64,000 bases of DNA from Collinsella sp. An268 (GTDB lineage: Bacteria; Actinomycetota; Coriobacteriia; Coriobacteriales; Coriobacteriaceae): contig NZ_NFJH01000005.1 in the NCBI RefSeq assembly GCF_002159765.1, forward strand, positions 62,001 through 126,000. The letters are read 5' to 3'. Position 1 is the stretch's first letter; every line of letters begins with the position of its first letter. The notes beneath the pieces are model-generated. The model did not search any database and was not told the DNA's origin. It saw only the letters and a program-made list of their open reading frames with translations. Below, piece by piece: positions 1,897 to 16,657 of the stretch. The position numbers were made by a program, and so were the translations under genes.

Positions 1897-2169
1897 GACC
1901 GTAGCACGCGCCGTGCGAACAGTGGCCATCGAGGTGCGCCTGCCGGGCGGTACGGAAGGTCGCAGGAACTGCGGTACAAAACGGAGCACATAACGGTGGC
2001 GCAAAGCGGTGGTGCAGAACCTGTGGATTCGGCCCCCCGAAGCTTTCCTTCAATATGCCACCCGGGGTATACCAGTTCTGCACCTAGACAGACACTGCCT
2101 CCGCGCTCAAATGATTCCCCAGCGCGGCCACGCCTTCCCAGGCGCGAGATGCGAAAGGATTTGGACATC

Positions 2170-5100
2170 ATGCCCTACAACCGAATAGCCCCCACAACCT
2201 TGCGCGCTGTTTTAGCCGCAAGCTTGGTATTTTCCGGCCCGGGGGCGACGGCGGCCCTCGCCGCACCCGCAAGCGCCCATGCGGACGAAGAGACGCCGCA
2301 GGCAGACGCCGAAACCGAGGTGCGCGACCCCTCCCTCGATACCAGCGACGCCGCGGCTGCCTCGCCCGTGGACGAGGGCTATGCAGCCGCCACCTCCGCA
2401 GACGAAGAACCGGCGTCCGCCACCCCGGCGCCAGAAAGCGCGGTGGAGGCCACAGCCGAGCCCTTCACCCCTGCCGAGAGCGCATCCGCCGGCACGGTCA
2501 CCCTCATCCACAACGGCGGGCAAACGGTATACGGCTCGCTCGTCGAGGCAGCCCGGGCCGCGCAGGACGGTGACGTCATCGAGGTCTCGGGCGCGCTCAG
2601 CGTGAGCGAACCCGTGGTGATCGACGCGGGCCGCTCGATCACGCTGCGCGCCACCGCAAGCGCCACCATCACGCGCGCAGGAGCGTTCCCGCAGGAGGGC
2701 GGCAAGGCCGCGGGCATGTTCCGCCTCTTGGACGGCGCCGCGCTCACGTTGGAGGCCGCCGACCCCGCCGCCGGCGAGCTCGTTATCGACAACGAGCGGA
2801 CCGATTCGAACGAGGCCGTCGTCACCCTGCACGGGCAATCGACCTTCACCATGCGCGCGGGCACGGCCATCGAGGGCGCCCAATGCTCTTGGAAGCCCTG
2901 GGGCGCCGTCTACGTGCGCGAGGGCACCTTTGTGCTGGACGGCGGCGAGATTCGCAACGGCTTTTCCATGCGCAACGCCGCCGTGGCGGTGGAGCACGGG
3001 AGCACCTTCGAGATGCGGGCGGGCACCATCACCGGCAACCGCACGAGCTACTCCGAGTCCATCGTGTGGACCAAGGGCACCGTGCGCATGAGCGGCGGCA
3101 CCATCGCGGGCAACTCGTCCAACGTGTCGAGCGACGGCGTGGTCCACGTGCTCGAGGGCGGCCGGCTCAGCTTTACGGGCGGCACCATCGGCAACAACAA
3201 CCCCAATAACACCTTTGGCGTGCGCGTGGACGCCCGCGGCGCGCTCGAGTTGGGCGGGCAGGCGCGCTTCGAGGGCGTCGACCGCGTGAGCCTGGCACAG
3301 GGCGCCGCGCTCTCGTTTGCAAGCGCGCCCGGGGCGCACACCACAGACGACCCGATCGAGGTCGTGCTCGCGGACGAATGGCCGGCGGGCGGCGTGGTGG
3401 CCACCGCCACCTCGCCCGAGGTGGCGCGCGCCGCACTCGAGCGCCTCGCGGTGCGCCGTGCCGGAGCGCCCGAGCGCACGGCCTCGGTGGGCATCGACGC
3501 TACCGACCAGAGCCGCATTACCTTGGCCTCGGCCGACGTAGCGGCGCTCTTCGACCTGCTCGACCACCCCTTCGCCGGCAACCTCGGCCTCGAGCTGCGC
3601 AGCGAGCTCACCGGGTCGGACGCCCTCGAGGGTCTGCGCGCAACGGTGGAGGAGCACTTCGCCGGCGTGGACACGCCCGAGAAGCGCGTGAGACTGCAGC
3701 AGCTGGATGACATCGAGCGCTATGCGGCCTACCTTACCGCCCACGGCGACGAGCTCGCGGACACGGTGCGCACGCTCTCGCAGCTGGGCGACCCGTGGGC
3801 CGAGGCGCAGCGCACCAAGCAGGGCTACCAGTTCGACAACCTCGACGCCACCGGCCTCTACCTCAAGCCCGGCCAGGTGAACGAGATCGTGGTCTACGTC
3901 GATGCCGACGACCCGTCGAAGCTCTCGGTCGCCTGGCGCCAGGTGGGCGTGACCGACACAAGTAACTACCCCTCGCTCAACCTCGGCCAGCAAAACGGCC
4001 TCGTCAACGGCGCCAACCGCATCACCGTGGACCTTACCGACAAAACCTACGGCTCCATGCTCTACCTGCGTAACGACTCCACCGATAACGCAGCCCAGGT
4101 GCGCATCGAGGCGGCCGATGCCGCCGAGGTCGCCCTGGGCGCAACCGGGGGCGACGCCGCGGGCGCCGGCACCTCGGCAGACGGCGCCAACCCCGGCACC
4201 TCGGCAGACGGCGCCAGCCCCGCCCTCGGCACGAGCCTGGGCGCGCACCCCTTCTACGAGCACGACCCCGCCCATCCCGAGCGCTTCTGGACCTATGTGC
4301 AGGACATCCGCACCTACGCCGCGCGGGCGCAGGCGGGTGAGGCGGCCGACATGACGCTCATCCAGATGGGCGACGAGGGCAGCGCGCAGTTCGCCGTGAG
4401 CGCCACCGCTATGGCGAGGGCGTACGCCGGCATCGCGTCTCAGGAGGATGCCGTTGCCTACATCGAGAAATCGAATAAGGCGATCCAGGACCGGCTCGAG
4501 TTCTACTGGGCCTTCGACGGCTTCGACCCGGCCGAGGCAAGCGGCCCCAACGCCATCACCACCGCGCGCGTGCACACGGCCTTCACCCGCACGGTCAAGA
4601 GCCCCTCGACCATGTACGCCTACGGGCGCTACTTCCACATGCCCGAAAGCTCGGCCGCGTCGTTCCTATCGGGCGAGAGCATGTACGGCTGGGGCATGTC
4701 GCACGAATACGGGCACATGCTCGATAACAACGTGATCGCGGTTGCCGAGGAGACGAACAACCTCTACTCCATCGCCGGCTCGCGCCACGGCGGCATCGAG
4801 GCATCGCGCGCAGCGGGAACGGCGTTCGACCCCTCGGCGTACTACCACGTGAACGCCATGAACGCCACCAAGCGCCGCGATGCCGAGCTCGCGCAGATGG
4901 CCGCCGACCCGAACTATGTGCCCGACTGGATGAACGGCGACGTATGGGGCACCTACATCTGGACGCACGTAACCACATGGTGGAACGGCCTGCACTTCTT
5001 TGACGACTGGGATTACGCGGGCTACGATTTCTCCGCGAGCCCCTATACTGCAGAGATCGCCGCTGACGTGGAGACATACGGCGCCTACGGGGCGACCGTG

Positions 5101-6042
5101 CGCATCCTGCGCAGCGACGCCGATGCCGTAAAGACCATCGAGGACCTGGCGAGCAACGCCACCACGGGCGTCAAATACAACCGCATGGCCGTGGCCTTCA
5201 CCATGGGGACGGGCTACAACTTTGCCGAATACCTGTACGAGCTCGGCGAGCGCGACCTCGCGCCCGAGGTGCGGGAGTGGTGCGCGCAGTACCCCTCGAT
5301 GCCGCGCAAGGTGAAGTACTTCTCGCTGAACACCGATGCGCAGATCATCAACGGGGCGAAGACGTACGAGGAGATCGTGGGCGAGAACGGTACGGTGGAA
5401 CCCGAGCTTACGGTCGAGATCGTGGGCGACGCGCTGCGCGTGATGGCCTCGATGCCGAGCGACGAGCTCGCGCGCGCCACGACGGCGTGGGAGCTCTACC
5501 GCGACGGGCAGCTCGTGGGCTTCTCGCGCGACGGGGTGTTCGAGCTCATCGGCGACGCAGGCGACAGCGACCCGGCATCCTTCAGCGTGGTGGCCTACGA
5601 CGTGCGCCTGAATCCGCATACCGCGCTAACCGGCGGCGATTCCGGCGAGGAACCCGGCGGCGGCGAAGAGGGCGGCGGCTCCGGTGAGACCACCCCGCCC
5701 GAGGGCGGCGACGGCTCCGGCGGCGAAGGCGAGGTGACCCCGCCCGAGGGCGGCGATCAAGAGCCGGGCGACGGCTCGGGCGACCCCGATGGGGGAACCG
5801 GCGGCACGCAACAGCCGGACGGTCAGGAGCCTAACGCGCCGGATGGCGGCACAGATCCCGCAGACGGCGCCGGAACGTCTGGAACCAACCCGTCGCAGCA
5901 GACCGGCGCAGCAACGGGCGGGCGGACGGCACTCGCCGCAACGGGTGACCATACGCTTTGGGCGACGCTCATCACCGCGCTTGGCAGCGGCATCGCCATC
6001 GCCGGCGGAGCGCTCGCGACCCGGTTCAAGCGGGAATCGTAA
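2170..6042 (+). CDS. Surface M60-like zinc metallopeptidase with beta-helix region and sortase-type C-terminus
   Basis: About 1,290 residues. I chose ATG 2170 because AAAGGA lies 10 bases upstream and a signal peptide follows (hydrophobic LRAVLAASLVFSGPGATAAL); a longer frame to 1996 lacks this. Order: signal peptide; Ala/Glu-rich spacer; parallel beta-helix-like stretch with repeated GGTI-GN motifs (about residues 150-380); M60/enhancin-like peptidase region with the zinc motif HEYGH at residues 845-849; long Gly/Glu/Pro/Asp-rich spacer; LAATGD, hydrophobic segment and RFKRES tail. M60 (PF13402) enzymes cleave mucin-type O-glycoproteins, which suits a gut surface protein; substrate is inference. 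The LAATG motif departs from the usual LPXTG, so the sorting enzyme is uncertain. A strong hairpin follows at 6079. Confidence 0.88.
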   Translation: MPYNRIAPTTLRAVLAASLVFSGPGATAALAAPASAHADEETPQADAETEVRDPSLDTSDAAAASPVDEGYAAATSADEEPASATPAPESAVEATAEPFTPAESASAGTVTLIHNGGQTVYGSLVEAARAAQDGDVIEVSGALSVSEPVVIDAGRSITLRATASATITRAGAFPQEGGKAAGMFRLLDGAALTLEAADPAAGELVIDNERTDSNEAVVTLHGQSTFTMRAGTAIEGAQCSWKPWGAVYVREGTFVLDGGEIRNGFSMRNAAVAVEHGSTFEMRAGTITGNRTSYSESIVWTKGTVRMSGGTIAGNSSNVSSDGVVHVLEGGRLSFTGGTIGNNNPNNTFGVRVDARGALELGGQARFEGVDRVSLAQGAALSFASAPGAHTTDDPIEVVLADEWPAGGVVATATSPEVARAALERLAVRRAGAPERTASVGIDATDQSRITLASADVAALFDLLDHPFAGNLGLELRSELTGSDALEGLRATVEEHFAGVDTPEKRVRLQQLDDIERYAAYLTAHGDELADTVRTLSQLGDPWAEAQRTKQGYQFDNLDATGLYLKPGQVNEIVVYVDADDPSKLSVAWRQVGVTDTSNYPSLNLGQQNGLVNGANRITVDLTDKTYGSMLYLRNDSTDNAAQVRIEAADAAEVALGATGGDAAGAGTSADGANPGTSADGASPALGTSLGAHPFYEHDPAHPERFWTYVQDIRTYAARAQAGEAADMTLIQMGDEGSAQFAVSATAMARAYAGIASQEDAVAYIEKSNKAIQDRLEFYWAFDGFDPAEASGPNAITTARVHTAFTRTVKSPSTMYAYGRYFHMPESSAASFLSGESMYGWGMSHEYGHMLDNNVIAVAEETNNLYSIAGSRHGGIEASRAAGTAFDPSAYYHVNAMNATKRRDAELAQMAADPNYVPDWMNGDVWGTYIWTHVTTWWNGLHFFDDWDYAGYDFSASPYTAEIAADVETYGAYGATVRILRSDADAVKTIEDLASNATTGVKYNRMAVAFTMGTGYNFAEYLYELGERDLAPEVREWCAQYPSMPRKVKYFSLNTDAQIINGAKTYEEIVGENGTVEPELTVEIVGDALRVMASMPSDELARATTAWELYRDGQLVGFSRDGVFELIGDAGDSDPASFSVVAYDVRLNPHTALTGGDSGEEPGGGEEGGGSGETTPPEGGDGSGGEGEVTPPEGGDQEPGDGSGDPDGGTGGTQQPDGQEPNAPDGGTDPADGAGTSGTNPSQQTGAATGGRTALAATGDHTLWATLITALGSGIAIAGGALATRFKRES

Positions 6043-8882: not shown

Positions 8883-8990
8883 GGGCCCGCCCCCTTCCCT
8901 TACCGCGCGGCGAAACCGGCGGAGCAGTTGGTGTAGTACTTCTCTTCTGCCCGAATACGAAGGGATGTTGCCGGGAACATGCTTAGGAAT

Positions 8991-9010
8991 GCCTGAAGGT
9001 CGCTTCAGGC
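8991..9010. promoter_or_regulatory. Perfect 8-bp inverted repeat upstream of bsh
   Basis: GCCTGAAG and CTTCAGGC flank the loop GTCG. It is about 110 bases upstream of the bile salt hydrolase start. It could be an operator or a short hairpin; no clear promoter was recognised beside it. Confidence 0.4.
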
Positions 9011-9314
9011 CCTTTGATCTGCAGCCATGAGCATGTGCTTGTTACGCGCACATCGTACGAGCCCATGCTAAAACGGTTATACGTAGGATAAAACTGCATA
9101 TTAGGATACTTGAGGACGGGCTCATGTCATCCCATTCACTCTGCTAGGGCGATCTCCTGCCTCGACATTATGCACCCCACGGGACAGATGCGTAGACGCC
9201 GGAGCGCTATCATTGCCAAGACGCCCCCTGCCAGTGTCCCAACACCCTGGCTGCGCGCCCCGGCGACACGCCACCGCATAAGGCAGTACCCTACCGTGAA
9301 GAGAGAATCGCCAC

Positions 9315-9903
9315 GAACGCGCCGGACATCCACCCAGCATCCGCATCTGCATTGCTACCGCCATGGCCTGCAACCGGGCGTTTTTGGAGCGCACGCACGG
9401 TGACACGCGAGCTCCCCAGAGCACCTGCCCGGCACCTCACCGTGATAAGCTGCACGGACACGCGACGGACGCGCCTTTCGCCCAAGGCGCTGGGTCTTGT
9501 GGACGGCGATGCGGTCGCCATCAAGGCGGCGTGAGCGACGATTACCGGCCCCTACAGCGAGATAATGCGATCGCTGCTTGTCGCGATCGGCAAGCTGGAC
9601 GTAGGGGAGATCCTCGCGGTTGGGCATACCTTGTGCTGAACCTGCGGTATGCATTCCGAGCACCTGCTCGAAGCGCTTGAGCAGACAGGTACGGCACCCG
9701 AGCAGATTGCAGCGGCGCGACACGACGAGCGCGTCGTGCATGTGCTTGCCGGCTTCGAACGCCTTGAGGACGAAGTCGCTGCCAGCTTGTGTGCGATCCG
9801 GGAACACGCGCTTATGACCGCGCACGTACGCGTCACCGACTGCACCATCGACGTGCGCACAGGCGCGCTCACCACCCGTAAGGTGAAATTACCACTGTCC
9901 TGA
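9315..9903 (+). pseudogene. Degraded beta-class carbonic anhydrase
   Basis: Read across frames, this resembles a complete beta-carbonic anhydrase (zinc enzyme, CO2 + H2O to bicarbonate). The N-terminal part (NRAFLERTHGD) is in frame 3. After a frameshift near 9410, frame 1 continues with the zinc signature ISCTDTRRTRL (Cys and Asp-Arg of the CxDxR motif), then LGLVDGDAV. An in-frame TGA at 9532 interrupts the usual NAGA segment. The frame goes on with GPYSEIMRSLLVAI and VGHT, then a short disruption with a second TGA near 9637 right before the zinc site CGMH. The C-terminal part (ARHDERVVHVLAGFE, TGALT) is intact. At least three lesions make it inactive. It lies at the edge of the accessory slot. 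Confidence 0.75.
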
Positions 9904-9905
9904 TT

Positions 9906-10531
9906 TCACACATAGCGCCAGGCCGTGTAATGCTGCGGGTAGTCGTAGACGGTAACGCGCGTGCCCTGCAACGTGCGATACGCCTGAATCAAGCCTTCGC
10001 GGAGGCACTCCCAGCCGCTGCGCCCCAGATAGAGGAAGGATTCCCCGTCGTCCAACATATGGATACGCATGCGGGTCGCACAGCATCGAGCTCCAGCTTG
10101 TAGAGGAAACTGCTGGGGAAAGGCGTATCGAAGTGATTGAACAGATAGCAGTGCGAGTGGGATGTCGAGCATGCTAGCAGAGCGCATTTCAGCCGGTCGA
10201 AGCGTGCAGTCCATGCTGAGACGATGCTCGTGAGCGCTAGGCCGAGCTCGATTCCGGTCGCGCGGCGCGGCGGCTTCGCCGCCGCATAGGCCGGCACACG
10301 ACCCGTCCCGCGCCCGCCGTCGAGCAGGTAATCGGTAAACTTTTAGGTCGAGCGGGTCGAGCAACTCATTGAGCACGTAGTACGACTCGGCATCAGGTCA
10401 AGCGCGCTCGCAGCAGCGAGACCCACCCGCGCCGCGTCCGCCGTCGCCAGCGAGCGCCCGTAGATGACCTCATCCCATATTGCGCTCGCGGCGAAGAAGG
10501 AGGACCTAGCTGTGATGGGACCCGTCATCAT
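9906..10531 (-). pseudogene. Frameshifted gene of unknown function, next to the reverse transcriptase
   Basis: High-GC coding-like stretches sit in three frames on one strand: MTGPITARSSFFAASAIWDE at the start, then VLNELLDPLDLKVYRLP, then LFNHFDTPFPSSFLYKLELD, and finally GRSGWECLREGLIQAY to a stop at 9906. Joined, they would form one protein of about 200 residues, so I read it as a single gene broken by several frameshifts. I do not recognise the family. Its ATG overlaps the TGA of the upstream reverse transcriptase gene, so it may once have been coupled to it, or the junction may mark where the lower-GC island begins. Confidence 0.45.
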
Positions 10532-11916
10532 TGGCGCCTTCGTTTCAGTTTTCTGCCAGCGCGCTCCGTCCGCGCTAACGGTCCTATATCTCGTTTGAGC
10601 TTCCCGTACATATTGCTTACTGGCTTCGAGATAGGATCATCCGGAAAAGTTTTCTGCGCACGCCTCACATAAGAGAGAAAGTTCATCTGCGAATATCCCC
10701 CGCGGGCGTTGTCCCCTTTCTTGCTAAACGACTTGTATATTGCCGCCTTCTGTTTATTAGAAAGGTGACGTCCCCTTTTCTGGCACTTCCTCACTCTACG
10801 GTAGTAACGATTGAAGAACCTTCCAACTGTTCTTTGACGCAGTCTTACATAACGCCCGTCAAAATCAAAGCCGAGGTATGTGATTTTCTTTGCCCCGCTT
10901 TTGCACACCTTCTCAAAACAAGGCCCATTAAACTGCTCAACAATACTGTCATGCACATGAAAGAACTTTGTTTTCCCAGCCTGGAGGGATACTCCTGGTA
11001 CCCCCTTCACATAATCCAGAACCGCTGCGAGCACGTTCCTTTTATCCCAAGGAACGATGACGATGAAATCGTCACAGTATCGGAGGTATAGACCGTTGAG
11101 TGTAGAAATCGACCCGGCCATGGAAGTGTCGAAATCAAGCATGTAAACGTTTGATAGAGCGCCGCTTGCAGCAAGTCCCTGCGGAATCCCGACCCCAGCC
11201 CCCTCTTTCCAGGGAGCCTTTATACAGCTGTCTTTATTCGCTTTGAACTGCTCTTTTGTCAGCGCATGCGCCTCGTTCCGATTGAAGCTGCGAATACTTC
11301 CCTTGCGCCTCTTCTTTGAGCTCGTGTCATATCCACGAATCCCCAGAATCGAGTCAAGCTCCCAAATGGAATAATGAATAATGCTCTTTAAGACTCGATA
11401 ATGGTCTTTAGGAAGCTTCCCGTCTGAGAAAAGCTTCCGCATCATACCAAGAAGATAATCGTGTTGAATGCTTGGAAAGAAGCTTGAGAAATCCCCTGTC
11501 ATTACCGCGACGTTCTGAAGCTCGCGGATTTTCGAGAAAGCTTTTGCCGCTCCATCAATGTTGCTTAGATGTTTTTGCGGCCGATATGCTAGAACGCTTC
11601 CATCAGCCCCCGACTTTTCCAGCAGCACCTCATATCGATCAGACCATTGCAAAGAGTAATACTGATAAATCCTGTGGTCGAGATGGGCTGCATACGCAAC
11701 CTCCCTCGCTTTTACCGAAAACTCTTTCCCTAGATAGTCGCTATCCTCAACACGAAAGCTCTCAATCGTGTTTGAAATAAGCGGGTAAAACGCATGGCTC
11801 ACGACATAATCCGGATCCTCAACAAGACGCTTTACTTGAACATATGTAACAGGACTATCGAAATGCGTATAGCCTTTCTTCCGATGAGCATCGGCGATAC
11901 GGACGGAATAGTCCAT
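10528..11916 (-). CDS. Reverse transcriptase (defence-type/unclassified group, not group II intron)
   Basis: 462 residues from ATG 11916, preceded by GGGAGG; the frame is open further upstream, but that part is arginine-rich and looks non-coding. Polymerase motifs: GDFSSFFPSI with catalytic Asp142, GIPQGLAASGALSN (QG at 246-247), and YCDD at 280-283. After the palm comes ITYLGFDFDGRYVRLRQRT and a basic tail. There is no maturase or endonuclease domain, which argues against a group II intron, and the QG motif argues against diversity-generating retroelement enzymes. No clear retron VTG motif was seen. The best placement is the Abi/DRT/UG defence-associated class. G+C is near 48%, far below neighbours, suggesting transfer. 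About 340 bp of structured, apparently non-coding sequence lies upstream. Confidence 0.85.
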   Translation of the reverse strand: MDYSVRIADAHRKKGYTHFDSPVTYVQVKRLVEDPDYVVSHAFYPLISNTIESFRVEDSDYLGKEFSVKAREVAYAAHLDHRIYQYYSLQWSDRYEVLLEKSGADGSVLAYRPQKHLSNIDGAAKAFSKIRELQNVAVMTGDFSSFFPSIQHDYLLGMMRKLFSDGKLPKDHYRVLKSIIHYSIWELDSILGIRGYDTSSKKRRKGSIRSFNRNEAHALTKEQFKANKDSCIKAPWKEGAGVGIPQGLAASGALSNVYMLDFDTSMAGSISTLNGLYLRYCDDFIVIVPWDKRNVLAAVLDYVKGVPGVSLQAGKTKFFHVHDSIVEQFNGPCFEKVCKSGAKKITYLGFDFDGRYVRLRQRTVGRFFNRYYRRVRKCQKRGRHLSNKQKAAIYKSFSKKGDNARGGYSQMNFLSYVRRAQKTFPDDPISKPVSNMYGKLKRDIGPLARTERAGRKLKRRRQ

Positions 11917-12260
11917 TCTCCTCCCATCTTGGGTCAACCCGCTTGGATCAACAACGGGGCGGCTTCGTCTCCCCAAGCGGGCTTCACCGGCCGACAAACG
12001 ACCATGTACGTCGGCTCTCGCCAACGACCGCCGCGAACAAAGTGCTCGCCTGTGCCACAATAGAATCGGAGGTCGCAATGCCCGCTCTCGCGTTCAAAGC
12101 AACACTCGACCTGAATGCAGGCGAGTGCGCCGGAAATGCCGGAAACGTGATAATTATCTCGTTTGCGGTATTGACGGCAGTACCACACCCCCACGCCTGG
12201 TGCATAGGGCGTAGATACTATACCCCATCGAGATTATTCACAAACGGAAAAAGTAGCCAC
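11917..12260 (-). ncRNA. Candidate structured leader or ncRNA of the reverse transcriptase
   Basis: No convincing protein gene fills this stretch. The part nearest the reverse transcriptase start contains a perfect 9-bp inverted repeat (11938-11946 with 11973-11981, CCCGCTTGG/CCAAGCGGG) with an inner GGGG/CCCC pairing. Further upstream there are two similar stretches around CGCG-TCAAAG and CGCGAACAAAG. Retrons and DRT2-type systems encode an RNA template in this position, so a template RNA is plausible, but this is inference from position and structure only. Short reading frames exist on both strands and none is recognisable. Confidence 0.35.
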
Positions 12261-12448
12261 TGAGCCTGTCAACGACGATGACATGACGCTTAAACGCATG
12301 TACTTCGAGCTGGATGTGAAAAGACTACGCCCCTAGAGCTACAATCCCAAATGCCGAGACCGAGCTTTTAGGGAGAATGACCCCAACACCCCGGAGGTTA
12401 ATATTATGGCAAAGCGGTTACGTACTCGTCACCGCTTAGCTGGAGAAC

Positions 12449-12919
12449 GTGATTGAAGATATGAACAAGGTTTACGATTGCGACCGATCAACAAAACTCA
12501 CGGACGACAATTCCCCTATTAATAACTATCTAGACTACGAATTCTATTGCAACTCATGGTACTACCGTGGAAAGCCTAAGGTGAACGAGCGGGACTATGT
12601 GCGCTTGCAGCCCGAACCAAACAACAAGCATGATCCATTCGCTGTCGCCATCTACAAGGGCAGCAGAAAGGTTGGATATGTTCCGAAACACTACTCACGG
12701 GAAACTTCCAAGGCGATTAATGATGGAAGGGATATTCGTGTTGAAGTGAGCTGTGGAAGCGACAATTACGCACCGTTTTTCAGGGTATATGATGCAGCGA
12801 AGCCAGCTCCCAAAAAGTCCGATATACCAGAACGTAACCCGATTGGATGTTTCTTTTGGCTTCTACTGGCTCTAATTATACTTGGCTCTGCTAAAGCGCT
12901 TCTGACATCCGCCGGATGA
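12449..12919 (+). CDS. HIRAN-domain protein with C-terminal membrane anchor
   Basis: About 156 residues from GTG 12449 (GGAG just upstream); ATG 12461 is an alternative start. The middle matches the HIRAN pattern: RLQPEPNNKHDPFAVAIYKG followed by KVGYVPKHYS. HIRAN domains bind DNA ends or stalled forks, as in the eukaryotic HLTF protein, and occur alone in many bacterial accessory genes. The C-terminus has one hydrophobic segment (CFFWLLLALIILGSAKALL) that could anchor it to the membrane, an unusual pairing for a DNA-binding fold. G+C is near 47%. It is divergent from the reverse transcriptase across about 530 bp. A function in defence is inference from the neighbourhood. Confidence 0.7.
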   Translation: MIEDMNKVYDCDRSTKLTDDNSPINNYLDYEFYCNSWYYRGKPKVNERDYVRLQPEPNNKHDPFAVAIYKGSRKVGYVPKHYSRETSKAINDGRDIRVEVSCGSDNYAPFFRVYDAAKPAPKKSDIPERNPIGCFFWLLLALIILGSAKALLTSAG

Positions 12920-12978
12920 GTTCATGCTCGCGCGCCCCATCATCATAGTCGCCAACCAATCGAGACAAGGGGCGGCGC

Positions 12979-13270
12979 ATGAGAGGCGTGCATCCATCCA
13001 TATCGATGGATGCAATCGTCGAGGAGCTCACCGCCGTCCCAAGGGAAATCGAACGCATCGCAGCGGAGCTCATCGCCGCGAGGTCCATGGAGTCGATGTC
13101 CCTCCCGAGATGTGGGTGTCGCCGCTTCATCCGCAAAGACGGCGGCTCAGACAGTACCCGACGCTACCGGTACTCGGATATTCGGGTACACGCTTCCCGC
13201 CCGCACCGACAACCCTCTCACCAAAGATTATTCGATTGCCGGCATCGTTTCTGCAGAACACCAGTGCCGT
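12979..13270 (+). pseudogene. Transposase N-terminal remnant (IS1595/zinc-ribbon type)
   Basis: The first frame reads MDAIVEELTAVPREIERIAA and then PRCGCRRFIRKDG-TRRYRYSDIR, which resembles the CPxCGS-xxxF-RYRC zinc ribbon of IS1595-family transposases, but with the first and last cysteines lost. A shift to another frame then gives LPARTDNPLTKDYS, resembling the segment after the ribbon (F-ARTGNLLTKS). No catalytic domain follows. A 10-bp inverted repeat (12989-12998 with 13005-13014) lies at the start. This is a truncated, frameshifted fragment. Confidence 0.45.
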
Positions 13271-13432
13271 TTACATAGAACGGCGGTACAATTTGCGTAC
13301 GGTACTCATCGCCTTCAGCGAACAGCGCTCTCCCACTCCGAACCATTCCACTTGCCTAGCCCCTAGACACAGTTCAAGCAGCAAGGAACCGTTCGCAAGA
13401 AAACATGTGAATCAAGAAGAGTCGATGGTGCG

Positions 13433-14116
13433 CTATGCAAGCCATGAAGCTGGTACTAGAGCCTCGCCATCTCTCCAGCTATCTACGACACTATCAGCGC
13501 ATCCGTATGCTTCGCTGCCCGTATGGTCAACAACAATCACCTGCAGCCCCCCATTTAACTCCGCAACTCTATCATGAATAAACCGGTAGATGCGCTCAAT
13601 TTGCTCACGATCGAGTTTGTCGGTTCCCCCAGAATTAACCTGCGAGGGTTGGTCAAGAAATATGTCCAGCGCCGACGCGGCCATTTTGGCCGTGTCCACG
13701 ACCATCGTGCCGGTATTATCGACCTGCTGCCGGAGGTTTTTCGCTAGGCCCTTGGCGGTGGTCATCACCATATAACGCGACACGGCAGGATCACCAAGCG
13801 CACGTGCGAAGAACGAGTCGCAGACGCCCTTTGGCAGTTGCTTATCCGAGTCATGACACTTGCACTGGATGGCCCACCAGGAGCCGTCTTCACGAGACTT
13901 CGCCACAAGATCGATGCCGGTGTCCTGCGTATCGTGGATGGGGCAGCCATCCCACGCGAGCGCCTGTTCCAAGGTCCCCACACATTCGAAGTTGGATGCC
14001 CAGTACGGATCGTTTGCAAGGTATCAGACGCAGGCAGCCTCGTACTTGGTACCCTTCTCCTTCTCGGATATCGATGCGTTTACGATAGGATCGAGCGCGT
14101 CGTAGACCGTCTGCAT
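13433..14116 (-). pseudogene. Chimeric remnant: type ISP-like restriction endonuclease N-domain joined to a DUF3732-like tail
   Basis: ATG 14116 has a good ribosome site (AAGGAAG). The frame encodes MQTVYDALDPIVNASISEKE, then an in-frame TGA at 14024-14026, then continues intact. TGIDLVAKSREDGSWWAIQC and a CHDSDKQL-DSFFARA region match the Mrr-like nuclease core (Asp, then Gln-x-Lys) at the N-terminus of type ISP restriction enzymes. Those proteins are usually over 1,000 residues, whereas this ends after about 227 codons. The last 60 residues (LQVIVVDHTGSEAYGCADSV-WRDGEALVPASWL) instead resemble the C-terminus of DUF3732 proteins. I infer that a deletion fused two defence genes and a stop mutation finished it off. 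Confidence 0.6.
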
Positions 14117-14227
14117 CGCAACTTCCTTCGTTCGCAGCCTCTTCTCCCATTTCAATAATATCAGCGCCAAGAAAGCTACCGCCTAGAGCATACCTGCGAA
14201 TGAACTGGGGGAACCTTCTACAGCGCT

Positions 14228-14294
14228 TTGCCAAGTGTAGAGCGCTTGCTATAATCTTCTCAAATCCGGAATCAATTCCGGATTTGAGAAGATT
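14228..14294 (+). promoter_or_regulatory. Promoter overlapped by a 20-bp perfect palindrome (ATPase gene)
   Basis: TTGCCA (14228-14233) and TATAAT (14250-14255) are separated by 16 bases, a near-consensus sigma-70 promoter. A perfect inverted repeat with 20-base arms (14253-14272 and 14275-14294, loop CA) starts inside the -10 box and covers the expected transcription start. It ends 10 bases before the ATPase ATG and just upstream of its GAGG site. Such placement suggests an operator, possibly autoregulatory, or an mRNA hairpin masking the ribosome site. Confidence 0.7.
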
Positions 14295-14304
14295 TGAGGT
14301 TGCC

Positions 14305-15576
14305 ATGTACATTACTCGTGCGCTCGAACCTTTGGTTCGTAGATACTCCGAACACTTCAAAGTCGTCGTCGTAACCGGCCCTCGCCAAGTCGGCAAGACA
14401 ACTATGCTCAAGCACCTCATGGAAGAAGATGCATCGGAGGGCATCGAGCGCGCTTATGTGACCCTCGACAACACCGCCATCTTGCAAACTGCGAAGGAAG
14501 ATCCCGCGCTGTTCCTCCAGCGCTACCGCCCGCCCGTTCTCATCGACGAGATTCAGAAGGCACCGGAGCTTCTCCCCTACATCAAGGAAATCGTCGACGC
14601 GTCCAACCAGACCGGGACCGTCTGGCTTACCGGTTCCCAGCCATTCCACCTCATGAAGGAGGTCTCCGAATCGCTTGCGGGACGCGTCGGCGTAATAGAA
14701 ATGCTCGGCCTCTCTGGTGCCGAGGTTTCCGGCGTTCCTTCTGAACCGTTCTCCCCTGGACAGGATTACTTCGTTCGTCGCGTAACCGCATCCAAGTCAT
14801 ATAACGTGATAGAAGCATACGACCGCATCTGTGCTGGCTCGCTTCCGGGCATCCGCTCCCTGCCGGATGACCTGCGCGCAGGGGCATACGAGTCATACCT
14901 CGACACATACATCATGCGCGACATCCGCGACCTCTCGCAGATTGGCGACGAGCTGAAGTTTCGCCGCTTCATGACAGCCTGCGCTGCGCTCACCTCGAAA
15001 CCCGTGGTCTATGCGGAACTCGCGCGCATAGCGGACATCGACGAGAAGACAGCCAAGACGTGGCTGTCCCTGCTCGTGAGCTCGTACATCGTCAAGATTG
15101 TCGAACCTTACGCGAACAACTTGCTGAAGCGCCTTTCCAAGCAGCCGGTCATGCATTTTCTTGACACTGGCCTGGCAGCGTATCTCACGGGTTGGACCAG
15201 CCCGCAAGCTCTTGAAGCCGGTGCCATGAGCGGGCAGATCTTTGAGACCCATGTTTTTGGGGAGATTTACAAGAGCTTCCTCAACGCTGGGCAACGAGCA
15301 CCGCTCTACTTCTTCCGTAACAACGACAAGAAGGAAATCGACCTACTGATGGAGCGAGATGGCGCGCTCTTCCCCATCGAGGTGAAGAAAACGGCGTCGC
15401 CCTCGCGCAAAGACACGCGCAACCTAAACGCCTTGGACCCAGTCAATGCGTCTGACGTGGCGCCCGAGCTCTCGATGTACAAACGTGAAATTGGAACAGG
15501 TACTATCGTCTGCATGGTTCAGGACACGTTCCCCGTGAGCGAACGGGCGTGGGCCTTCCCGGTTTGGGCAGTGTAA
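14305..15576 (+). CDS. AAA-family ATPase with DUF4143 domain
   Basis: 423 residues from ATG 14305 (GAGG upstream). Walker A is VVVTGPRQVGKTT, and Walker B is PPVLIDEIQKAPEL. The central region continues as an AAA fold and the C-terminal half matches DUF4143, ending with an endonuclease-like core (FFRNNDKKEIDLLMERD, FPIEVKKT: Asp-x12-Glu-x-Lys). This family is very common in gut bacteria, usually as orphan genes in variable regions; the role is unknown, with proposals of DNA-related or toxin-antitoxin-like activity. The gene is intact. It is flanked by two different long perfect inverted repeats, one over its promoter and one just after it. Confidence 0.88.
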   Translation: MYITRALEPLVRRYSEHFKVVVVTGPRQVGKTTMLKHLMEEDASEGIERAYVTLDNTAILQTAKEDPALFLQRYRPPVLIDEIQKAPELLPYIKEIVDASNQTGTVWLTGSQPFHLMKEVSESLAGRVGVIEMLGLSGAEVSGVPSEPFSPGQDYFVRRVTASKSYNVIEAYDRICAGSLPGIRSLPDDLRAGAYESYLDTYIMRDIRDLSQIGDELKFRRFMTACAALTSKPVVYAELARIADIDEKTAKTWLSLLVSSYIVKIVEPYANNLLKRLSKQPVMHFLDTGLAAYLTGWTSPQALEAGAMSGQIFETHVFGEIYKSFLNAGQRAPLYFFRNNDKKEIDLLMERDGALFPIEVKKTASPSRKDTRNLNALDPVNASDVAPELSMYKREIGTGTIVCMVQDTFPVSERAWAFPVWAV

Positions 15577-15620
15577 TTGCGGGCAAAGAAAGCGGCTCCG
15601 CATCGTATGCCACTGGTACC

Positions 15621-15674
15621 ATCACTCAACTCCCGTTGACTCAGTTTTACTTGAGTCAACGGGAGTTGAGTGAT
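15621..15674. repeat. 23-bp perfect inverted repeat after the ATPase gene
   Basis: Arms 15621-15643 and 15652-15674 are perfect reverse complements around an 8-base loop. The sequence contains TTGACTCA/TGAGTCAA and is unrelated to the palindrome before the ATPase gene. An ATG follows immediately at 15675. It lacks a U-tract, so a plain terminator is unlikely; it resembles an operator left from a deleted neighbour. Confidence 0.7.
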
Positions 15675-15800
15675 ATGGAACTCATCGGATGCACAGCTCG
15701 GCTCCAATTACCGAAAAGATGGTTGCAGAAGAGGATTCCCAAGTCGAGCGAACGGGCCTGCATTGTTATCGGTACGGGCTTTTCTCACGCTCGGGCTTAA
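15675..15800 (+). CDS. Small reading frame or gene remnant after inverted repeat
   Basis: 41 codons starting at the ATG that abuts the 23-bp inverted repeat and ending SERACIVIGTGFSHARA. No ribosome site other than the repeat itself precedes it. I do not recognise it. It may be the joined ends of a deleted gene, or non-coding. Confidence 0.2.
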   Translation: MELIGCTARLQLPKRWLQKRIPKSSERACIVIGTGFSHARA

Positions 15801-15884
15801 TGTGCACACCAAACAGCTCAACTCTGTTCATCGAGTTGGATGAGATGTATTAGGGGATCGTTTCCATCTCATCGTCAGCCCTCA

Positions 15885-16250
15885 CTACCACTCATCCCCC
15901 GCGCGGCCGCGCTGCTGCTTCAGCTGCGAGCGGCGGCGCTTGTCGGCCAGCCGGCGCTCGCGCGCGGCCTTGGGCACCTTGGTCTTCTTGCGCACGCGGG
16001 GAGGTTGGGCGCGCCGCTCGATAATCTGCGCGATCTTCTGCAGGCAGAGACGGCGGTTCTGGAGCTGGCTGCGCGTCTCGCGCGCGGTCACGGTGATGCC
16101 CGTGGGCACGTGTTTCATGCGCACCGCAGAATCCGTGGTGTTCACCCCTTGGCCGCCCGGCCCCTTTGCCCGGAACACCTGCACCTCGCAATCACGCGCG
16201 AGTTCGTCGGCACTCTGCCGAGCGTAGTTCGCATAGTCTCGCCAGTTCAT
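15885..16250 (-). CDS. arfB: Peptidyl-tRNA hydrolase ArfB-like (release-factor domain, ribosome rescue)
   Basis: 121 residues from ATG 16250, which has GAGGGG 7 bases upstream. The domain carries the release-factor catalytic loop [20 protein letters not shown] with the GGQ motif. A basic C-terminal tail ([20 protein letters not shown], then [11 protein letters not shown]) enters the empty mRNA channel in known ArfB proteins. It lacks the codon-recognition domains of RF1/RF2, as expected for rescue factors that free ribosomes stalled without a stop codon. It acts in the cytoplasm. Length and motifs are normal, so I regard it as functional. Confidence 0.88.
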
Positions 16251-16378
16251 GCCACACCCCTCACGTTGCATTCGACACGGGAACAATCCTACATGGATAC
16301 GGGGACAATCCTACCTGCAAATGCAACCGGGCGCATGCGCGCGCTACGGGCCGTAGCACTCCACGATATCGATGGAAT

Positions 16379-16657
16379 CTATGCGGCGACATCGAGCGGA
16401 TCTGAGACGACGGGGCTCTCCTTGTACATCTTCCAAGGATCAAGATCGATGCAAGTTGCCGCGTCGTGCGAGCCCGAAATGTCCCATGCAACCGCATCAT
16501 TCAAGACGGTTAGACACCCTCGAAACACATCGACATCAGTTGTCCGAAGCAGCAAGCTCCCAATTCTGCATCAGCTCATCCCCGTGCAGCCTCCAAGCGT
16601 AATCCGGAGCCGCCTGCACCCGTTGTACCCAGTGCCCCGCATCGTTGCCAAACTCTC
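16379..16657 (-). pseudogene. Frameshifted DUF2442-family gene
   Basis: Directly after the tex stop, the minus strand reads HWVQRVQAAPDYAWRLHGDE then LMQNWELAASDN before TGA. One base further, a second frame continues RGCLTVLNDAVAWDISGSHD then CIDLDPWKMYKESPVV to TAG at 16379. Together they give the DUF2442 layout (beta strands, then TVAWD and IDLDP), split by a single-base frameshift. DUF2442 genes often sit with DUF4160 genes; function is unknown. The remaining 128 bp to arfB contain two copies of CAATCCTAC 22 bases apart and nothing else I recognise. Confidence 0.55.

What the first reader, a model, noticed from the sequence alone, without database searches (positions are those of the whole stretch)
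10528..12260. Solo defence-type reverse transcriptase with a structured upstream leader
An intact 462-residue reverse transcriptase (Asp142, QG, YCDD) sits alone in an accessory slot beside broken restriction genes and a HIRAN protein. It lacks maturase/endonuclease domains and clear retron or DGR motifs. The 340 bp before it have no convincing gene but contain a perfect 9-bp stem with an inner G4/C4 pairing. Retrons and DRT2 keep a template RNA in this position. Seen: motifs and stem. Inference: template RNA and anti-phage role.
Basis: partly seen in the sequence, partly recalled or inferred. Interest (0 to 1): 0.7.

Follow-up and report, generated by a model that had tools for sequence, protein, structure and literature searches.

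The report
Anti-phage DRT2 that builds hidden gene
A gut bacterium related to Collinsella carries a reverse transcriptase plus an adjacent structured RNA that together belong to the known DRT2 anti-phage family, and the RNA's antisense strand hides a stop-free repeating gene (neo) that appears only when the RNA is copied end to end, with a jump signal different from the one described for the studied examples.

Summary
The 462-aa RT (10528-11916, minus) is a DRT2 reverse transcriptase: PADLOC Drt2 4.5e-118, solved KpDRT2 1e-50, and its AlphaFold model fits 9c0i (E 6e-31, next 2e-10). The 'leader' is the DRT2 ncRNA (about 11925-12214, minus). When the template region (12044-12181) is joined end to end at a short shared motif (ACT/ACT), the antisense strand gains a TTGACG-17-CACAAT promoter, an RBS-ATG and a 46-codon frame without stops: a neo gene. 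A blind scan of 34 related DRT2 loci finds repeat length divisible by 3 plus an open frame in 22 (about 2 expected, p about 1e-18). Aligning the junctions, 17 of 25 loci share the jump motif at exactly one offset. In this Gram-positive clade the motif is AYT, not the ACA of the Klebsiella/E. coli clade, and the RT scores below NCBI's Drt2 cut-off. It is a divergent DRT2 whose neo can be predicted; phage defence itself is not tested.

The parts
10528..11916 (-). DRT2 reverse transcriptase, 462 aa (ATG at 11914-11916; stop at 10528-10530)
   Evidence: AF2 model pLDDT 89.4, best PDB match 9c0i
11925..12214 (-). DRT2 non-coding RNA (5' end inferred from the promoter; 3' end approximate)
   Evidence: Conserved layout in homologues; fold z-score -3.8
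12217..12243 (-). Likely promoter of the ncRNA: TTGTGA - 15 bp - TATAGT; the -10 is conserved in position in L011 and L012
   Evidence: by eye, inference
12191..12214 (-). 5' hairpin (SL1, '5' handle'): CTACGCC ... GGCGTGG
   Evidence: equivalent hairpins with different sequence in the homologues
12044..12181 (-). Predicted template region copied in tandem, 138 nt = 46 codons
   Evidence: homologous position open and divisible by 3 in 8 of 8 Coriobacteriia loci
12179..12181 (-). Jump motif 1 (RNA ACT, first bases of the template; equivalent of ACA-1)
12041..12043 (-). Jump motif 2 (RNA ACT, just after the template; equivalent of ACA-2)
12171..12176 (+). neo -35 element TTGACG (antisense)
   Evidence: TTGAC conserved in the Coriobacteriaceae and Firmicutes loci, TTTACG in the Eggerthellaceae loci
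12056..12061 (+). neo -10 element CACAAT preceded by TGC (TGn extended -10); 17 bp from the -35 only across the repeat junction
   Evidence: homologous to GATAAT in L011 and TATAAT in Firmicutes
12068..12080 (+). neo ribosome-binding site GGAGG and start codon ATG (12078-12080)
   Evidence: GGAGG and ATG at the same place in L011
12044..12181 (+). neo repeat unit (antisense), Neo 46-aa repeat MPALAFKATLDLNAGECAGNAGNVIIISFAVLTAVLACATIESEVA
   Evidence: no stop in the concatemer, GRAVY 1.11
12144..12163 (-). Hairpin inside the 5' part of the template, varies in sequence but keeps 8-9 pairs in eight Coriobacteriia loci
12030..12036 (-). Pseudoknot strand 1 (TCGCGGC; 5 of 7 pairs form here)
12009..12026 (-). 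Scaffold hairpin CGTTGGC-GAGA-GCCGACG
   Evidence: present in the window fold, not tested for covariation
11989..12003 (-). Scaffold hairpin GGTCG-TTTGT-CGGCC
   Evidence: present in the window fold, not tested for covariation
11936..11983 (-).
11957..11963 (-). Pseudoknot strand 2 in the loop of the 3' stem (GCCGCCC)

Best explanation
This is a two-part DRT2 defence system: a reverse transcriptase and a template/scaffold ncRNA transcribed just before it. By analogy with KpDRT2, the RT holds the ncRNA through SL1 and the pseudoknotted 3' scaffold and copies the 138-nt template. At its 5' end the cDNA end re-anneals from motif 1 (ACT) to motif 2 (ACT), so the RT copies the template again and makes tandem cDNA. 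After phage infection the cDNA becomes double-stranded. Each junction brings a -35 (TTGACG) and an extended -10 (CACAAT) to 17 bp and drives an mRNA antisense to the ncRNA. That mRNA has a GGAGG-ATG start and an endless 46-aa repeat frame (Neo). The very hydrophobic Neo protein stops growth, so the infected cell does not release phage. Shown here by sequence: RT family, covarying ncRNA scaffold, family-wide junction rule (shared motif, 17-bp promoter, length divisible by 3, no stops). Inferred: cDNA synthesis, expression, growth arrest, defence.
For: RT: Drt2 4.5e-118 against 2.7e-20 for the next RT family; KpDRT2 structure as sequence match 1.1e-50 and fold match 6e-31 against 2e-10 for the next entry. 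ncRNA: 25 loci keep the 3' stem and pseudoknot; on 20 of them 14/15 pairs have compensatory changes, 98.7% of cells paired, no shuffle as high, slid controls 26-49% paired. neo: blind choice of -35/-10 in 34 non-redundant loci gives length divisible by 3 and an open frame in 22, expected about 2. With anchors, 22 of 25 divisible by 3 and all 22 open; jump microhomology of 3 nt in 17 of 25 at spacing 17 and offset 5, at most 9 elsewhere. All 8 Coriobacteriia loci open in the same frame. Positive control: the same scan on two E. coli Drt2 loci returns ACA/ACA, 117 nt, open, as published (PMC12039810).
Against: The window alone proves little about neo: its -10 (CACAAT, 4 of 6) is weak, the blind scan picked a nearby TAGAAT instead (133 nt, not divisible by 3), and at its G+C content a chance open frame is common (0.55 per in-phase unit). 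A second frame is also open in the window. Codon-position bias in neo is weak (101/91/115 differences), so little amino-acid conservation. Some homologues (L033, L045, L046, L056, L059) do not fit the rule. The RT is below NCBIfam's Drt2 equivalog cut-off (325 against 390 bits). Coriobacteriia anchors were placed by homology, not blindly. No RNA, cDNA or phage data exist.
Confidence: 0.85

Rival explanations
1. DRT2 RT and ncRNA are real, but the template has other ends: a jump between GCA (left) and GCA (right) giving a 111-nt repeat of 37 codons.
For: In the window, L011 and L013 a GCA/GCA pair gives 111 nt, divisible by 3 and open; several Kp-clade repeats are also 111 nt (PMC12039810).
Against: L012 has no such match in register; the Eggerthellaceae loci have GTA on the left and GCA on the right; no 17-bp promoter is formed; the 138-nt rule holds for all eight Coriobacteriia and most Firmicutes loci.
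Confidence: 0.08
2. DRT2 RT with a template ncRNA whose cDNA acts by itself (for example as a nucleic-acid signal), without any neo protein in this clade.
For: Tang et al. found Neo annotation harder in divergent DRT2 clades and raised alternative mechanisms (PMC11100668). Weak codon-position bias.
Against: Length divisible by 3 and absence of stops across the family have no reason under this view; promoter and RBS are placed as in KpDRT2.
Confidence: 0.07
3. Retron, diversity-generating retroelement or group II intron RT rather than DRT2.
For: All share the RT fold; weak profile hits to group II and retron RTs.
Against: Drt2 profiles win by about 100 orders of magnitude; the best solved structure is KpDRT2; no maturase or endonuclease domain, no Rfam retron or intron match.
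Confidence: 0.01
4. A decayed, inactive DRT2 remnant in an island of broken genes.
For: The island holds truncated restriction-like ORFs and is absent from at least one other species of the genus; the neo -10 is degenerate.
Against: RT intact with all catalytic motifs, scaffold pairs kept, neo open.
Confidence: 0.1

Closest known systems
KpnDRT2 (Klebsiella pneumoniae DRT2, UG2; PDB 9c0i; PMC12039810, PMC11100668)
   Same: Single-domain RT of similar size preceded by a ~280-nt ncRNA with 5' hairpin, central template, 3' pseudoknotted scaffold; antisense neo frame, promoter formed only across the repeat junction with 17-bp spacing, RBS-ATG just after the -10.
   Different: About 29% identity; jump motif AYT[G/A] instead of ACA; junction 5 nt after the -35 and 12 nt before the -10 here, 6 and 11 in the E. 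coli relatives examined; repeat 138 nt instead of 120; TGn extended -10; RT in a separate well-supported clade.
E. coli Drt2 loci (NZ_CP176484.1, NZ_CM132658.1)
   Same: Recovered by the same junction scan: promoter spacing 17, length divisible by 3, open frame.
   Different: ACA/ACA motif, 117-nt repeat.
DRT9, DRT3, DRT10 (other RT-ncRNA defence systems)
   Same: RT plus ncRNA, defence.
   Different: RT profile far weaker (Drt3a 2.7e-20, Drt9 8.3e-12); their published products are homopolymer, dinucleotide or short repeat DNA without a neo gene (PMC12483538, PMC13314766, PMC12632851).
Retrons
   Same: RT with an upstream template RNA.
   Different: Retron profiles score very low; no a1/a2 msr-msd layout was seen and no effector gene is attached.

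Membership tests
DRT2 (UG2) | RT most similar to Drt2 | tested here: met
   PADLOC Drt2 4.5e-118, next family 2.7e-20; KpDRT2 structure best in sequence and fold
DRT2 (UG2) | NCBIfam NF041746 equivalog cut-off (390 bits) | tested here: not met
   325.5 bits over the full length of the model. This is the cut-off for naming close equivalogs, not a property of the system; it marks the copy as divergent.
DRT2 (UG2) | No domain beyond the RT; RT catalytic YxDD | tested here: met
DRT2 (UG2) | ncRNA of about 280 nt directly upstream with 5' hairpin and 3' pseudoknotted scaffold | tested here: met
DRT2 (UG2) | ACA-1 / ACA-2 jump motifs flanking the template (as in the KpDRT2 clade) | tested here: not met
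   The place holds ACT/ACT here and AYT[G/A] in the clade; the function (short identical motif at both ends) is met. Hence 'divergent DRT2', not a member of the KpDRT2-like ACA subgroup.
DRT2 (UG2) | Promoter formed only across the repeat junction, 17-bp spacing | tested here: met
   TTGACG-17-CACAAT; family-wide peak at 17; window -10 weak
DRT2 (UG2) | Stop-free antisense frame, repeat length a multiple of 3 | tested here: met
   138 nt; 8 of 8 Coriobacteriia, 22 of 34 loci blind
DRT2 (UG2) | Tandem cDNA, phage-triggered neo mRNA, Neo-dependent growth arrest, defence | not testable with these tools
   Needs experiments
Retron | Retron-type RT and msr/msd RNA | tested here: not met
   RT profile weak; no Rfam retron match
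Group II intron | Maturase domains and intron RNA | tested here: not met
   Only RVT_1; no Rfam group II intron match; TIGR04416 57.9 of 300 bits
Diversity-generating retroelement | Template and variable repeats with a target gene | not tested
   RT falls in DRT2; repeats were not searched for

The most novel reading that the evidence does not exclude
The Gram-positive DRT2 clade (Coriobacteriia plus many Firmicutes) makes neo genes by the same rolling-circle logic but with an AYT jump motif and a shifted junction. Neo annotation keyed to ACA would miss them, and neo synthesis would then be general to much of DRT2, with Neo repeats of about 42-57 aa that share almost no sequence.
Probability: 0.6. 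Interest if true: 0.6.

Novelty: new variant of a known kind. Interest (0 to 1): 0.52.

Why it matters
The DRT2 papers showed de novo gene synthesis for relatives of KpDRT2 and left open whether distant clades do the same (PMC11100668). The junction rule found here (motif AYT, spacing 17, divisible by 3) predicts exact cDNA junctions and Neo sequences for dozens of loci in gut Actinomycetota and Firmicutes, each testable by one long-read run. It also shows how a gene with no fixed coding locus evolves: promoter parts, frame and repeat length are kept while the protein sequence drifts.

Tried and rejected
GCA/GCA jump (111 nt) rejected because it fails in L012 and in Eggerthellaceae. ACA motifs as in KpDRT2: not found at the needed places in this clade. 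Codon-position test for protein-level selection on neo: weak and inconclusive. Close relatives in viral contigs: none useful. Rfam: no match in the window. MAFFT alignment of the whole scaffold was too poor for RNAalifold beyond the 3' stem, so a curated extract of stem and pseudoknot strands was used for counting; MAFFT also broke the Eggerthellaceae rows, which were left out of the count. Folding the Neo concatemer was not attempted because the joined sequence is not letter for letter in the window.

Full report
What was checked. Pfam finds only RVT_1. The upstream leader has no sense-strand gene. The 9-bp stem is at 11973-11981 / 11938-11946, and the 296-nt leader folds more stably than any of 200 shuffles.

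What the protein is. PADLOC's Drt2 model scores 4.5e-118 and the next RT family 2.7e-20. NCBIfam's Drt2 equivalog model matches over its full length at 325.5 bits, below the cut-off of 390, so this copy is divergent. The only strong solved relatives are KpDRT2 entries (1e-50). An AlphaFold2 model from 41 homologues (pLDDT 89.4) matches 9c0i with TM 0.77/0.83 and E 6e-31; the next PDB entry, DRT9, is at 2e-10. In a tree of 45 DRT2 proteins the window protein falls in a Coriobacteriia clade (support 100/99) grouped with Firmicutes proteins, away from KpDRT2 and Photobacterium Drt2 (the root is for drawing only).

Distribution. In the class, 10 of 398 genomes drawn have a relative at E up to 1e-20, four of them in the window's own family. 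A scan of one genome per species gave 64 candidate loci, about 50 of them convincing DRT2s in Coriobacteriia, Firmicutes and a few others.

What the leader is. The upstream regions of these loci share one layout: a sigma-70-like promoter, a 5' hairpin with changing sequence, a conserved element GTCAA (or GTAAA in the Eggerthellaceae loci), a variable region, a CCTCC element, a reversed -10-like element, then a 3' scaffold. The last stem and a pseudoknot between its loop and a strand upstream are intact in 25 loci, apart from one broken stem pair in L017 and one or two missing pseudoknot pairs in several of the Coriobacteriia loci. On 20 loci, 14 of 15 pairs have changes on both sides, 98.7% of cells pair, no shuffle reaches this, and slid controls pair 26-49% (this alignment is a curated extract of the two helices). 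In the window the pseudoknot has 5 of 7 pairs. This matches the pseudoknotted scaffold of the KpDRT2 ncRNA (PMC12039810).

The hidden gene. KpDRT2 copies a template inside the ncRNA in tandem by jumping between two identical ACA motifs; each junction forms a promoter on the antisense strand, which reads a stop-free frame called neo (PMC12039810, PMC11100668). The same was looked for here. In Firmicutes loci the antisense strand has TTGACA and TATAAT that come to 17 bp only when the template is joined end to end. A blind choice of the best such pair in 34 non-redundant loci gives a repeat length divisible by 3 with an open frame in 22; shuffled interiors predict about 2 (binomial p 7e-19, relatedness of loci not corrected for). 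With anchors in 25 loci, 22 are divisible by 3 and all 22 are open, and a shared 3-nt motif at the junction peaks sharply at spacing 17 and offset 5 (17 of 25; elsewhere at most 9). Spacings 14 and 20 are equal to 17 modulo 3, so the frame alone cannot tell them apart; the motif and the promoter can. The same scan on two E. coli Drt2 loci returns the published ACA/ACA rule and 117-nt repeats, and on Photobacterium ACA/ATA with 111 nt. In the Gram-positive clade the motif is A, C or T, T, then usually G or A.

The window itself. The homologous position gives a template at 12044-12181, 138 nt, jump motif ACT at 12179-12181 and 12041-12043, -35 TTGACG at 12171-12176, -10 CACAAT at 12056-12061 preceded by TGC, GGAGG at 12068-12072 and ATG at 12078-12080, and an endless 46-residue repeat MPALAFKATLDLNAGECAGNAGNVIIISFAVLTAVLACATIESEVA with mean hydropathy 1.11. 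All eight Coriobacteriia loci are open in this same frame (138 or 129 nt). The second frame that is open in the window is closed in L012, L016 and L017. On its own the window would not prove neo: its -10 is weak, the blind scan preferred a wrong neighbour, and open frames are common at this base composition. The case rests on the family. Codon-position differences are 101/91/115, so the protein sequence is hardly conserved; the authors likewise attributed most conserved Neo residues of KpDRT2 relatives to nucleotide-level constraints (PMC12039810).

Context. The system lies in an accessory island between a C45-type peptidase gene and a Tex-like gene; in G050 of the same genus these are 193 bp apart, and in the nearest relative G325 the stretch 9005-14464 is replaced by other DNA. 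A HIRAN protein, a truncated Mrr/DUF3732 ORF and an AAA_14/DUF4143 ATPase lie beside it. The names of the two flanking genes are my reading of their sequence, not a profile search.

Mechanism and limits. The most likely mechanism is the one shown for KpDRT2: tandem cDNA, a promoter made at the junction, Neo made on infection, growth arrest. In this clade every step after the sequence features is inferred. The published text I could read says that Neo annotation was harder in divergent clades; supplements were not available, so I cannot say that the AYT rule is unreported.

Noticed in passing
window 8909-16657: Accessory island between a C45-type peptidase gene and a Tex-like S1 protein gene; the flanks are 193 bp apart in G050 and part of the island is replaced in the near relative G325.
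   Followed up: partly
window 12449-12919 (+): HIRAN-domain protein divergent from the ncRNA; weak match to PADLOC candidate PDC-M03B.
   Followed up: partly
window 13433-13981 (-): 182-aa ORF joining an Mrr_cat_2 nuclease part to a DUF3732 / LmuB C-terminal part; looks like a remnant fused by an internal deletion.
   Followed up: no
window 14200-15576 (+): AAA_14/DUF4143 ATPase, PADLOC candidate defence family PDC-S01; also present in G325, which lacks the DRT2.
   Followed up: no
L095 (Nitratidesulfovibrio plasmid) upstream of drt2: TTGACA/TATAAT with a 4-nt jump match gives 145 nt, not divisible by 3: either other junction ends or a broken neo.
   Followed up: no
L033, L045, L046, L050, L053, L056, L062: Bacillaceae and Selenomonas DRT2 subclade; L033, L045, L046 and L056 fail the neo rule in the blind scan, the others were not resolved; a different junction rule may apply.
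   Followed up: no
L029 / L030 (same genome, contigs CAIFEZ010000050 and 39): Two DRT2 copies in one metagenome bin; L029 has the 3' scaffold but an apparently foreign sequence in place of the template.
   Followed up: no
window 1996-6042 (+): Large secreted protein with a C-terminal LAATG-type cell-wall anchor signal; looks like a peptidase, judged by eye.
   Followed up: no
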